DNA of 64,000 nucleotides from Seleniivibrio sp. (lineage in GTDB: Bacteria; Chrysiogenota; Deferribacteres; Deferribacterales; Geovibrionaceae): contig NZ_JAJOIL010000001.1 in the NCBI RefSeq assembly GCF_021209385.1, forward strand, positions 124,001 through 188,000. The letters run 5' to 3'. The notes beneath the pieces are model-generated. The model saw only the letters and a list, made by a program, of their open reading frames with translations. It did not search any database and was not told the DNA's origin. A program made the position numbers and the translations under genes. Positions 28,150 through 34,118 of this stretch are shown here, piece by piece (within the stretch, counting starts at the first letter, position 1; each line of letters begins with the position of its first letter).

Positions 28150-29037
<888 letters not shown>

Positions 29038-29601: not shown

Positions 29602-30048
29602 ATGATACACAAGATGACACACTGCCTTCTTATGATTTTCGTTGTAATATTTGCAGTTCAAACAGCGAATGCCTTTGAGATAGGCGATACGGTTAAGGCT
29701 GTCGGAAAGACGGGAAAGGTTTACGAAGCGAAGATAGCTTCAGTGGCTCTCAGTAAGAACCTGCTTCTCATCAGAGAGGACGGGACTCAGTTCAAAATAC
29801 CTGTTTCAGGTATCAAAGCAATTCATAATATCGAAGGCGAGCTTTACAAAGCCGCGAACGGAACGTTCATGAAAGTGGTTAAAATAGTCACAAAGGACGG
29901 AAGAACACTTATGGGCGGAGTAAATGTCAGCGCAACAGTGGCTATCGAACACATGAACGGCATTGTTACAAATCTTATGATTCCGGACATGCATCGTTTT
30001 CAGTCAATAGAAACCGATAGCAGTTTGACAGTAAGCAGTATTCAATAA
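29602..30048 (+). CDS. Secreted hypothetical protein
   Basis: A 148-residue protein with a clear signal peptide (KMTHCLLMIFVVIFAVQTANA, cut here, cleavage about residue 24). The mature part is a beta-rich domain: EIGDTVKAVGKTGKVYEAKI, NLLLIREDGTQFKIPVSGIKAI, VKIVTKDGRTLMGGV. It has no cysteine in the mature form and no motif I recognise. It stands between the nif promoter region and a chemoreceptor gene and ends with its own terminator. No function is proposed. Confidence 0.7.
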   Translation: MIHKMTHCLLMIFVVIFAVQTANAFEIGDTVKAVGKTGKVYEAKIASVALSKNLLLIREDGTQFKIPVSGIKAIHNIEGELYKAANGTFMKVVKIVTKDGRTLMGGVNVSATVAIEHMNGIVTNLMIPDMHRFQSIETDSSLTVSSIQ

Positions 30049-30054
30049 TTTAAC

Positions 30055-30079
30055 GGGGCGGTCTCTGAACCGCCCCTTT
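30055..30079 (+). terminator. Terminator after the secreted hypothetical protein
   Basis: GGGGCGGT and ACCGCCCC form an 8-bp GC-rich stem with a 6-base loop, followed by TTT. Confidence 0.8.
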
Positions 30080-30241
30080 CATATTCCAACATTAACATTT
30101 CAATATTACAACTTCCAATTAGACAATATGTAATATATATAATATAATATCATAGTGTTTTCTATTTTATTCTTTTAAGTGACTTATTTTGTAAATTAAT
30201 AAATACCATTAAAGAAAATATATATTAAAGAGGAATTCAAA

Positions 30242-31918
30242 ATGAAATCACTAAAGATGAAAATAACACTGATGGTCGTAATCCCTATCATCGCCATCGC
30301 TCTCTTCGGAGCCTTTTCAAACATCAGAACAATCATGCAGGACAGCAAAGAGGAGATTGAGCGCACAAGAAATGATCTTATGGAAGCCAAAAAAGAAGAG
30401 CTGAAATCCTACATTGAGATTATGCTGACCGACGTAAACCACATCATAGAAACAGCACCATCCGAAGAAGAGGCAAAAAACATTATTATCGAAAAAGTCA
30501 AAAAGATACACTGGGGCGAAGAAGGATATTATTTCATTTATAATATGGACGGTATAATGATTTCAACCCAGAACAGCTACAAGTCCATAGGTACAAACAG
30601 GCTCAACATACAGGACGACAAAGGCTTTAAATATATTAAGGCAATGCTTGAAAAAGCCGCTTCCGGCAGCGGATACATCAGCTACATGAAGCTAAAAAAC
30701 TCCACAAACACTATTGTCCCTAAACTCGTTTATTTCGATGTAATTAAAAGATGGAACTGGGTGGTTGCCACCGGCTTTTATATAGATGACATAGACGAAC
30801 AGATAGCCGTTCTTGAAACCGACACAAAAGCAAAGCTGAAAAGCTTAATCATATCCACAATAATCAGCACTGCCGTTGTTGCACTGATAGCGCTGGTCAT
30901 CGTTATGTATTTCATCAAAAAACTCAGCGACAATATCAACATGGTCACTGAATCCCTTAAGGAAATTTCCACAGGCGAAGGTGACCTCACAAAACACCTG
31001 CCGGTTCTGTCCAATGATGAAGTCGGTCAGCTCTCAACGTATTTCAACAACTTCACGGCAAAACTGAGGGAAATAATAGCCGCCGCCCACGAAAGCTCCC
31101 AGTCTGTGGCGTCCGGCAGTGCCGAGCTGGCATCTTCAACAGAGGAACTCTCCGTGACGGTACGCGATCAGGCGGCACAGATAAATTCAGTCGCATCCGC
31201 CACAGAGGAAATGAGCGTTTCCGCCGCACAAACATCAGGCAACCTAGACAACAACCGCGCCGCAGTAATTGAAACAACCAACGATACTGCCGAAGGCAGC
31301 AAAATGCTTAATCAGGCTGTGGATGAGATAAATTCTATCAAAAACAAAGTTGACCAGCTGAACATGACCATTAAAAAACTCGCGGAGTCTTCCAACAATA
31401 TAAATGAAATAATAAACGTCATAAGCGATATAGCAGACCAGACAAACCTTCTGGCTCTTAATGCCGCCATTGAAGCGGCAAGAGCAGGAGAACACGGGCG
31501 GGGATTTGCAGTTGTCGCAGACGAAGTGCGAAAACTCGCGGAAAGAACCCAGACAGCCACAGGCGAGATAAACTCAATAATATCAGGCTTCCACAGCGAA
31601 TCCACCAAAGCATCTGAAGATATGGGATCTGCCATAAAACAGGTGGAACTCGGTGTAAACACCATGAAGACAACATCGACCTTTTTTGACAAAATAGTGT
31701 CATCCGTTCAGAAAATAAGCAAAATGAACGACGAGATAAGCGGAGCTGTCGGTGAACAGATAAAAGCCATAGACAACATAAACGCCAATGCTCAGTCACT
31801 TTCATCGGGAGTTGAGCAGAGTTCACAGGCGCTTCAGGAGGTCAGCCGGACAATTTCCGATCTTGAAACGCAGGCAGGAAACCTCATGGAACTTATAGGT
31901 CATTTCAAAGTTAACTGA
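30242..31918 (+). CDS. Methyl-accepting chemotaxis protein with single Cache domain
   Basis: A 558-residue receptor. Membrane segment 1 is about 8-26, the periplasmic part (30-200) is a single-Cache (sCache_2) type sensor with [20 protein letters not shown] and [15 protein letters not shown], membrane segment 2 is about 202-227, then HAMP, then the signalling domain with the hairpin tip [23 protein letters not shown] and [18 protein letters not shown]. The ligand is likely a small organic acid, by family habit only. There is no C-terminal CheR-binding pentapeptide. AGAGGAAT ribosome site. Confidence 0.93.
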
Positions 31919-31924
31919 TCGCTC

Positions 31925-31956
31925 AGGCTGCCGGATATCATCCGGCAGCCTCTTTA
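31925..31956 (+). terminator. Terminator after the chemoreceptor gene
   Basis: AGGCTGCCGGAT and ATCCGGCAGCCT form a perfect 12-bp stem with a 3-base loop and a short T-rich tail. It overlaps the last codons of the convergent macro-domain gene. Confidence 0.85.
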
Positions 31957-32378
31957 TTAAGCACTATAAATCTTTCATTAAGTATGGGCGCCAGAATTGC
32001 AATCACATCCGACGGACGAAGACCGCCCTTTCCGCATCCCGGAAGCGGCATATAAACCTTTTTCCATCCTATCTGATCCACAAGCATGACAAGCTCCAGC
32101 GCGGAACGCTTTATAAGCCCAAGATCGGCACGTTCCTGCCAGCTGTGTTCAACGGGAAAGCTGACTATCATATTGTCCAGATGATGCACATGGTTGCCGA
32201 ACTGGTCAACCAGATACCCCAGCTTAGCGTCAAGCCACGGCTGAACCTCGCCCACCTGTTTCGCGTTGCCGGAACCGAGATTTGCCTTGCCGTTCTTTCT
32301 CACAGTGCCGTTTGTGGTTATCACCACAGGATCTTTGCCCACATGGTCCAGAAGATCGCCCGTTTCAAATCGCATCAT
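31938..32378 (-). CDS. Macro-domain-like protein coupled to draG
   Basis: A 146-residue single-domain protein. The strand-loop VVITTNGTVRKNGKANLGSGNAKQ replaces the usual NAAN..L.GG loop of macro domains, and VYMPLPGCGKGGLRPSDV matches the second ADP-ribose phosphate loop (compare GCGxGGL in DarG-type macro domains). It should bind or hydrolyse ADP-ribose derivatives. It overlaps draG by 14 bases, with GAGGG as ribosome site inside draG, so both are made together. A task in handling free ADP-ribose or in de-modifying NifH is inferred from this context alone. Confidence 0.72.
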   Translation of the reverse strand: MMRFETGDLLDHVGKDPVVITTNGTVRKNGKANLGSGNAKQVGEVQPWLDAKLGYLVDQFGNHVHHLDNMIVSFPVEHSWQERADLGLIKRSALELVMLVDQIGWKKVYMPLPGCGKGGLRPSDVIAILAPILNERFIVLNKEAAG

Positions 32379-33258
32379 GCACCCTCACTTCCAGATTCAA
32401 AAGCTTGCCGGTCTGTTCCGAAACGGCATCCACAACCTTTGTCTCCAGCTTTCTAAGCCATTTTGAAGGAATATTGTTAACCCCGTAAAGCGCACCTGCA
32501 AGCATACCCACGATAGCGCCGTTGGTGTCCGCGTCGCCGCCCTGATTAACGGTGTTCACAAGAGTATCCTCGAAATATTCGCCCTCTGCAAAAAAATGCA
32601 TCACTGTTTTAAATGTATCCACAACATATCCGGAACATTCGCCCTTGTAGTTTGAATAAGAATACTTCGGAAACTCCCTTATCAGCCTGTTCCCTATGGC
32701 AAGCGACTTCAATTTGTCGCCGCTTGTGAATATTTCCCGCATCATCTCGCCGAAAACCAGTGTTATGCGGTCGGAATGTTCATTGTTATGGGTAAGCCTG
32801 CTCTGAGCAAGCGACATTTCTTCAAACTTTGACCAGTCCTTAAGGCTGTAAAGCACCAGCGGCAGATTGCGCATAGCGCCCCCGTTGCCTGCGGACTGCT
32901 CCGAATATGGCGATTCAGTTCTTCCCATGGTCACATAGTCTCTCAAACCGCGGCGCACAGTGGAGCCGATGTCAACAGGTTTTGATTTCATCCAGTTCAC
33001 AAAGTGGTCGGCAGCGGATGTCAGCCTGAATCCTTTCTGCTCAATTATGCTGGCACCCAGAGCAAGACACATCTCCGTATCGTCGGTCACTCTGCCCGCA
33101 CGGAGCTTAAGCCAGCCGCCCCCTATTATTCTGTTATGCACGCCGTAATGTTCTTTTATCTCTCTCGGATTCATAAATTCTGTGGTGGCGCCCAGCGCGT
33201 CGCCGACGGCAAATCCCAGATAACTTCCGAGCGCTCTGCGCAGTAGCTCATTTTTCAT
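32365..33258 (-). CDS. draG: ADP-ribosyl-[dinitrogen reductase] hydrolase
   Basis: A 297-residue ADP-ribosylglycohydrolase that removes ADP-ribose from the NifH arginine and reactivates nitrogenase. Motifs: GSYLGFAVGDALGATTEF, the Mn-binding TDDTEMCLALG near residue 60, SAGNGGAMRNLPL, and NQGGDADTNGAIVGMLAGA for the second metal-binding site. I start at the ATG at 33258, with GGAG seven bases upstream; a TTG two codons before is possible. It is divergent from draT with only 35 bases between the starts. Confidence 0.94.
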   Translation of the reverse strand: MKNELLRRALGSYLGFAVGDALGATTEFMNPREIKEHYGVHNRIIGGGWLKLRAGRVTDDTEMCLALGASIIEQKGFRLTSAADHFVNWMKSKPVDIGSTVRRGLRDYVTMGRTESPYSEQSAGNGGAMRNLPLVLYSLKDWSKFEEMSLAQSRLTHNNEHSDRITLVFGEMMREIFTSGDKLKSLAIGNRLIREFPKYSYSNYKGECSGYVVDTFKTVMHFFAEGEYFEDTLVNTVNQGGDADTNGAIVGMLAGALYGVNNIPSKWLRKLETKVVDAVSEQTGKLLNLEVRVHDAI

Positions 33259-33293
33259 TTGCAAACTCCGCGGATTTCCTCTATTTGATTATC

Positions 33294-34118
33294 ATGGGTG
33301 TAGAAAAACAGAAAAGCAGCATATCCCGTCTTAAGGATCTGAAGAGGTTTTACCATTACTCCAACCTCATCAATATCCCCACTTACATGTTTGTAAGCAA
33401 CGAATACAATCTGAACGTCATGCCTATCACCATAAGCGGGGTGTGGGAATACTATGCCGATATTTTCAATTCCATCAAACAGGCTGATACAATTGAAAAT
33501 GCCGCCAAAGTATTCACAAACGCAATGGACACGCTCTTCTCTCTTTCCGAAAAGCACAACGGGAAAAAAATGGGAAGCTACACCAGACTGCTGAAAGGAT
33601 GGCTTTTCGATTCCAACAGCATTGAAGGCGCCGTTATGAAGGGATGGGTTGAAAGCCGCTTCGGAATCATGCCGTTCTTTCATAAAGAGATCATCCCCGA
33701 TGTCAACAGCGAGGAATATTACGGATACATGGTTGAGAAGATGGATAGCAAACATAACAAAAATCTTATCTTCCATCAGCTTGATCTCCTCTACACCTAT
33801 ACCCAGTGCATCCTCCAGACGTTCTACAGGGATTCTCTGCCGAAAATCACGCTGTACAGAGGCGTTAACGACCTTTCGGAACACCTTGTGGTCAAGGAAT
33901 ATGACAAAACAAGGCTTTGCATAGAACAGAATTCGCTCGTGTCTTTCACATCCGACAGAGACATAGCGTCCCAGTTCGGCGATTATATACTGACCTCGGA
34001 AATACCGTACACCAAGATAGTTTTCTTCTCGGAAGTTCTGCCTACACTGAGTTTCGTCGGGGAAAAAGAATACCTTGTCCTCGGCGGGCGGTACGATACA
34101 ATTGTGACCTACTATTAA
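33294..34118 (+). CDS. draT: NAD+-dinitrogen-reductase ADP-ribosyltransferase
   Basis: A 274-residue DraT that moves ADP-ribose from NAD+ to Arg101 of NifH when fixed nitrogen is present or energy is short. Family patterns: FYHYSNLINIPTYMFVS, FDSNSIEGAVMKGWVESRFGI, ITLYRGVNDLSEH (the R of the NAD site) and ENSLVSFTSDRDIAS-like NSLVSFTSDRDIASQFG (the S-T-S core), with EKEYLVLGG holding the catalytic-type Glu. Start ATG at 33294; there is no good ribosome site, so the TTG at 33285 cannot be ruled out. Confidence 0.92.
   Translation: MGVEKQKSSISRLKDLKRFYHYSNLINIPTYMFVSNEYNLNVMPITISGVWEYYADIFNSIKQADTIENAAKVFTNAMDTLFSLSEKHNGKKMGSYTRLLKGWLFDSNSIEGAVMKGWVESRFGIMPFFHKEIIPDVNSEEYYGYMVEKMDSKHNKNLIFHQLDLLYTYTQCILQTFYRDSLPKITLYRGVNDLSEHLVVKEYDKTRLCIEQNSLVSFTSDRDIASQFGDYILTSEIPYTKIVFFSEVLPTLSFVGEKEYLVLGGRYDTIVTYY

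What the first reader, a model, noticed from the sequence alone, without database searches (positions are those of the whole stretch)
31938..34118. DraT-DraG switch with a built-in macro-domain protein
draG and a macro-domain gene overlap by 14 bases, and draT is divergent with 35 bases between starts. Removal of ADP-ribose from NifH releases ADP-ribose; a macro protein could recycle it, bind modified NifH, or provide a second de-modification route. I do not recall this gene in classical draTG loci.
Basis: partly seen in the sequence, partly recalled or inferred. Interest (0 to 1): 0.7.

Follow-up and report, generated by a model that had tools for sequence, protein, structure and literature searches.

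The report
Macrodomain partner of the DraTG switch
A small ADP-ribose-binding-type protein is encoded directly behind the enzyme that switches nitrogenase back on, and a survey shows that this protein subfamily turns up almost only in bacteria with that on/off switch, in at least two phyla, always with its expected catalytic lysine replaced by glutamate, so the well-known nitrogenase switch probably has an undescribed third part in these bacteria.

Summary
The anatomy is confirmed. draT and draG are divergent with 35 bases between ATGs; a 146-aa macrodomain ORF overlaps the draG 3' end by 14 bases, inside a nif cluster (Seleniivibrio-like, Deferribacterota). The overlap is kept in all 8 genomes of two genera. 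The link is not local. In 297 genomes of another phylum, all 6 strong carriers of this macro subfamily are among the 23 DraT+ genomes (chance 1e-7). In one family there, 56 of 57 macro+ genomes have draG or draT; 22 have the macro within 4.1 kb of draG, nine of them divergent at 56-71 bp. In G480 the order is draT-draG-ORF-macro. All 47 DraTG-linked macros read have Glu where TARG1/DarG have the catalytic Lys (K84/K80); all 88 phage, plasmid, viral-contig and DraT-minus kin read have Lys. The Glu type is one clade (97/99 support). AlphaFold pLDDT 94; nearest folds are DarG-ADP-ribose and TARG1. Most likely it is a dedicated accessory of the DraT/DraG switch that binds ADP-ribose or ADP-ribosylated NifH. 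Lysine-type hydrolysis is unlikely; another chemistry (as in SCO6735) is not excluded. Association: shown. Biochemical role: inferred. New variant of a known kind.

The parts
31938..32378 (-). Glu-type ALC1-like macrodomain gene (146 aa; ATG 32378 or 32375), FPVE motif with E76 (numbered from the second ATG) at the TARG1 K84 / DarG K80 position
32365..33258 (-). draG, ADP-ribosyl-[dinitrogen reductase] hydrolase (297 aa)
   Evidence: TIGR02662 372 bits over cut-off; aligns with 2woc/3g9d
33294..34118 (+). draT, NAD-dinitrogenase reductase ADP-ribosyltransferase, divergent from draG with 35 bases between ATGs
   Evidence: PF07357 308 bits; geometry
32365..32378 (-). 14-base overlap of the draG end and macro start, GTGAGGG purine stretch upstream of the macro ATG inside draG: suggests translational coupling (inference)
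   Evidence: overlap of 11-32 bases kept in 7 relatives measured
31925..31951 (.). terminator-like 12-pair hairpin at the end of the macro gene and of the facing chemoreceptor gene
   Evidence: pattern match; not above the number in shuffles
28150..29019 (-). nifH, the presumed target, with the GCAGRGV motif of the modified arginine
   Evidence: TIGR01287 470 bits; sequence

Best explanation
The macro gene encodes a dedicated third component of the DraT/DraG switch in Deferribacterota and in a second, sulfate-reducer-like phylum. SHOWN by computation: it is a single-domain ALC1-like macrodomain; its Glu-type clade is almost confined to DraT+ genomes and is repeatedly placed next to draG; the lysine used by TARG1 and DarG is replaced by an invariant glutamate while the ADP-ribose-binding loops are kept. 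INFERRED: it is made together with DraG by translational coupling and binds ADP-ribose, most likely the ADP-ribosyl-arginine on NifH (the glutamate would face the arginine guanidinium at C1'') or the ADP-ribose that DraG releases. By reading modified NifH or removing product it would tune how fast or how completely DraG reactivates nitrogenase. It is not expected to cleave by the covalent lysine route. My split: accessory of DraTG about 0.85; given that, reader or product sink about 0.6, hydrolase with a different chemistry about 0.4.
For: Overlap with draG in 8 of 8 genomes of two genera. All 14 own-phylum genomes with a strong match have draG and draT. Second phylum: 6 of 6 strong carriers DraT+, base rate 23 of 297. 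Family f239: 56 of 57 macro+ genomes have draG or draT; nine divergent pairs 56-71 bp apart, 22 within 4.1 kb, 33 of 37 same-contig pairs within 22 kb. G480: draT-draG-ORF-macro. Glu in 47 of 47 DraTG-linked, Lys in 88 of 88 other kin. One clade with the column removed. Fold of ADP-ribose-binding DarG/TARG1, loops conserved.
Against: No binding or activity data. Placement next to draG is absent in g3, g4 and f10 of the own phylum, where the macro lies elsewhere. 5 of 19 own-phylum draTG genomes and 14 of 67 f239 draG genomes lack it, so the switch can work without it. Within f239 presence of macro and draG is only weakly associated (P 0.04) because both are common. SCO6735 shows that lack of the TARG1 residues does not mean lack of hydrolysis.
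Confidence: 0.6

Rival explanations
1. A second eraser: the Glu-type macrodomain hydrolyses ADP-ribose from NifH-arginine, or from other acceptors that DraT modifies and DraG does not serve, by a water-activating mechanism like SCO6735 rather than by the lysine route.
For: SCO6735 has Gln at the same position, needs it, and is active on acidic-residue and thymidine-linked ADP-ribose (PMC5087735, PMC9967889). A fixed Glu is a plausible general base. Some draT+ macro+ genomes gave no draG hit (G872, G888, G905), though these are fragmented assemblies.
Against: No macrodomain known to me cleaves arginine-linked ADP-ribose, which is the ARH/DraG chemistry; the lysine is lost. 53 of 57 macro+ genomes in f239 keep draG.
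Confidence: 0.28
2. The macro serves nitrogen-fixing cells in another way (for example cleaning up ADP-ribose-1''-phosphate or O-acyl-ADP-ribose, or countering phages), and its link with draTG reflects shared residence in nif islands.
For: Conserved neighbours also include nifV and a NifB-like gene; the wider family is mostly phage-encoded; in f296 the macro sits beside an unrelated 318-321-aa gene away from draG.
Against: Only about 4 of 15 nifH+ genomes in the sampled subset are DraT+, yet all 6 strong carriers are. G441 (nifH+, DraT-minus) lacks the Glu type while its family members G505 and G533 (DraT+) have it. draG is the closest recurrent neighbour, at 56-71 bp or overlapping.
Confidence: 0.1
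3. A hitch-hiking gene of phage origin that happens to lie behind draG and has no role in the switch.
For: The wider family is common in phages and viral contigs, and in Deferribacterota the placement behind draG is confined to two genera.
Against: Independent linkage to draG in another phylum with different geometry, near-exclusive occurrence in DraT+ genomes, and a fixed diagnostic residue in one clade.
Confidence: 0.04

Closest known systems
DraT-DraG (draTG, draTGB) nitrogenase switch of Rhodospirillum rubrum and Azospirillum brasilense
   Same: draT and draG families, nif context, NifH target motif.
   Different: draT and draG divergent here; a macrodomain gene overlaps draG; the classical third gene is draB, NifO-like (PMC5249018).
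TARG1 (OARD1/C6orf130), ALC1-like macrodomain hydrolase
   Same: Fold and ALC1-like class (TM about 0.75).
   Different: Catalytic Lys84 is Glu and Asp125 is Gly (PMC7050489, PMC5087735).
DarG antitoxin macrodomain
   Same: Closest solved structure, ADP-ribose complex 5m3e; partner of an ADP-ribosyltransferase.
   Different: Lys80 is Glu; Trp83 often lost; no DarG C-terminal domain; the partner transferase is DraT, not DarT; far below the NCBIfam DarG cut-off.
SCO6735-type macrodomains of Streptomyces
   Same: ALC1-like and lacking both TARG1 catalytic residues.
   Different: Glu here, Gln85 there; no known link to nitrogenase.
Phage macrodomains of PHROG 335 ('phosphatase', 'ADP ribose binding protein')
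   Same: Nearest sequence kin, 34-48% identity.
   Different: All 88 Lys-type sequences read have Lys where the DraTG-linked ones have Glu; separate side of a supported branch.

Membership tests
DraT-DraG nitrogenase regulation | DraT and DraG homologues encoded together | tested here: met
   PF07357 and TIGR02662 over cut-off, 35 bases apart
DraT-DraG nitrogenase regulation | NifH with the modifiable arginine motif in the same cluster | tested here: met
   nifH at 28150-29019 with GCAGRGV
DraT-DraG nitrogenase regulation | reversible ADP-ribosylation of NifH in response to ammonium or energy | not testable with these tools
   needs experiment
classical draTGB operon | third gene draB, NifO-like | tested here: not met
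   the gene overlapping draG is a macrodomain; draB as described in PMC5249018
ALC1-like macrodomain class | single small macrodomain fold closest to ALC1/TARG1/DarG | tested here: met
ALC1-like macrodomain class | binds ADP-ribose | not testable with these tools
   loops TTNG, GxGxA, PGCGxGG conserved, which is suggestive only
TARG1/DarG-type lysine hydrolases | catalytic lysine (K84/K80) | tested here: not met
   E76 here; Glu in 47 of 47 DraTG-linked members
DarG antitoxin | encoded with DarT and over the NCBIfam DarG cut-off | tested here: not met
   28.5 bits against a cut-off of 250; neighbours are draG and draT
PHROG 335 / phage macrodomains | sequence similarity to the family | tested here: met
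   E 7.5e-16; but a separate Glu-type clade

The most novel reading that the evidence does not exclude
A previously undescribed class of macrodomain specialised on ADP-ribosyl-arginine of NifH: the catalytic lysine was exchanged once for a glutamate that recognises (or acts beside) the arginine guanidinium, giving the nitrogenase switch a third player that reads, protects or erases modified NifH, linked to draG in different arrangements in two bacterial phyla.
Probability: 0.4. Interest if true: 0.85.

Novelty: new variant of a known kind. Interest (0 to 1): 0.7.

Why it matters
[quoted passage not shown] its known parts are DraT, DraG, PII proteins and AmtB. The papers searched do not report it (open-access papers only).

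Tried and rejected
Pfam and PDB searches with the single sequence were too weak; profiles were needed. A first neighbourhood scan with 1.5-kb flanks showed no macro outside Deferribacterota. It was misleading: the G480 macro lay just beyond the flank and others lie on other contigs, so whole-genome profile searches replaced it. The single-sequence search of viral contigs found nothing; the alignment found 158 kin. Considered and rejected: that the gene is DarG (far below cut-off); that it tracks the second, Anf-linked draT (G027 has the macro but one draT); that nif membership alone explains it (G441: nifH+, DraT-minus, no Glu-type macro, in the same family as two DraT+ macro+ genomes; a single contrast). 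Whether the Deferribacterota members form one clade within the Glu type was neither recovered nor rejected (p-AU 0.14). DraT+ genomes of the phylum of G225 were checked genome-wide for the macro only in G225, which lacks it. No sigma-54 box was found in the draT-draG gap.

Full report
OBSERVATION. The window holds a nif cluster (nifV, nifB, nifN, nifE, nifK, nifD, nifH, then the finding, nifZ, ferredoxin III and a NifA-like activator; several of these named by position and similarity only) on contig C30 of a genome closest to Seleniivibrio woodruffii and Deferribacteraceae MAGs. draG (ATG 33258, stop 32365, minus strand) and draT (ATG 33294, plus strand) are divergent with exactly 35 bases between start codons. 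A 146-aa ORF starts inside the draG 3' end with a 14-base overlap (11 from its second ATG). draG passes the TIGR02662 cut-off and aligns along its length with the solved R. rubrum and A. brasilense enzymes; draT is PF07357. NifH keeps the GCAGRGV motif of the classical target arginine (sequence; the target residue is established knowledge).

WHAT THE SMALL PROTEIN IS. Pfam gives nothing. NCBIfam gives a weak partial DarG match far below cut-off, PHROGs a 7.5e-16 match to a phage 'phosphatase' family. A profile made from its kin finds only DarG and TARG1 chains in the PDB. The AlphaFold2 model (46-sequence alignment, pLDDT 94.4, pTM 0.89) matches T. aquaticus DarG bound to ADP-ribose (5m3e, E 8e-9) and TARG1 best. 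It is therefore a single-domain ALC1-like macrodomain.

DISTRIBUTION IN THE OWN PHYLUM. The gene is present as a full-length strong match in 14 of 51 genomes (12 of family f1, 2 of family f10); all 14 have draG and draT, and 5 further draTG genomes lack it. It overlaps draG in genus g1 (5 of 5) and g2 (3 of 3). In g3, g4 and f10 draG has other neighbours (nifH in g3 and g4) and the macro lies elsewhere. From contig length alone I take G018 to be Denitrovibrio acetiphilus and G003 to be Desulfurispirillum indicum (memory, not tested).

DISTRIBUTION ELSEWHERE. The many weaker matches (1e-8 to 1e-18) lie mostly in open frames of DarG length. In an 80-genome part of that draw nifH occurs in 15 genomes, 4 of them DraT+, so the link is unlikely to be with nitrogen fixation alone; this figure ignores phylogeny. 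In a broad set of 385 genomes the strong matches are the 14 own-phylum genomes, G358, and one DraT-minus genome (G200), whose copy is of the phage-like lysine type. In family f239 (76 genomes) 57 carry the macro, 67 draG and 64 draT; 56 of the 57 have draG or draT (exception G879, an 88% complete assembly). Where macro and draG share a contig (37 genomes), 9 are divergent 56-71 bp apart, 22 lie within 4.1 kb and 33 within 22 kb. In G480, of another family, the order is draT, draG, a 139-aa ORF, macro. Recurrent neighbours are draG, nifV, a NifB-like radical SAM gene and a 95-144-aa protein of no Pfam family.

THE DIAGNOSTIC RESIDUE. In phage, plasmid, viral-contig and G200 members the motif reads xPxK, the lysine corresponding to DarG K80 and TARG1 K84; the neighbouring tryptophan corresponds to DarG W83 at the same offset. 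All 88 such sequences have Lys; all 47 DraTG-linked sequences read have Glu. The tryptophan that in DarG stacks on thymine is often lost in the Glu type (13 of 47 keep it, against 84 of 88), and the GCGNG loop becomes GCG[GKFS]GG. With the Lys/Glu column removed, Glu-type sequences form one side of a single branch (SH-aLRT 100 in a 108-row tree; UFBoot 97 / SH-aLRT 99 in a 73-row tree). The ADP-ribose loops TTNG, GxGxA and PGCGxGG are conserved.

MECHANISM. Shown: a distinct macrodomain clade, linked to draG and almost confined to DraT+ genomes, with the lysine of covalent catalysis replaced by an invariant glutamate. Inferred: it keeps ADP-ribose binding, has lost lysine-type chemistry, and serves the DraT/DraG cycle. 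In the TARG1 mechanism K84 attacks C1'' of the distal ribose, exactly where arginine is attached in modified NifH; a carboxylate there would suit the positively charged guanidinium. I therefore favour a reader of ADP-ribosylated NifH or a sink for released ADP-ribose that tunes DraG. The main rival is a hydrolase with another chemistry: SCO6735 has Gln at this position, needs it, and is active. Nothing here separates these biochemically. A mere hitch-hiker is unlikely given two phyla and several gene arrangements.

KNOWN OR NEW. The classical A. brasilense operon carries draB, a NifO-like gene, as third gene (PMC5249018). Reviews of ADP-ribosylhydrolases and of viral NAD/ADP-ribose systems treat DraT-DraG and macrodomains separately in the passages read (PMC7050489, PMC9503650). 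Paper searches for macrodomains with nitrogenase or draTG found no report of this pairing (open-access papers only).

LIMITS. Genomes are one per species, many are metagenome bins, related genomes are not independent, and within f239 both genes are so common that presence alone is weakly informative (P 0.04). Pseudomonadota with classical draTG could not be sampled as a group. No binding or activity data exist.

Noticed in passing
G000:C12:8699-9460 (L102 8663-9469); also L103, L104, and L220 in another phylum: A second draT sits next to a sigma-54 activator and a few kb from an anfHDGK-like alternative nitrogenase cluster in this genome and in congeners, with no second draG over cut-off; the same pairing appears in G508 of another phylum. 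It looks like a DraT dedicated to the alternative nitrogenase sharing one DraG.
   Followed up: partly
L212 5510-5926, L215 6407-6838, L213 9757-10071: A 95-144-aa protein of no Pfam or NCBIfam family (KFSGLPDPxPFNRxDLYEVLPML) recurs beside the macro, nifV or draG in the second phylum; it may be a further accessory.
   Followed up: partly
window 29602-31918: A chemoreceptor-like gene and a small exported protein sit between nifH and the macro here, while other genomes have different or no genes there.
   Followed up: no
window 9460, 9657, 29060, 35187: Exact or near-exact sigma-54 boxes lie upstream of nifV, nifB, nifH and the NifA-like gene, none in the draT-draG gap; total matches in the window are not above shuffles.
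   Followed up: no
L216 2069-3034, L217 5841-6797: In family f296 the Glu-type macro follows, with a short overlap, a 318-321-aa protein with weak MORN-repeat similarity, away from draG: another possible partner.
   Followed up: no
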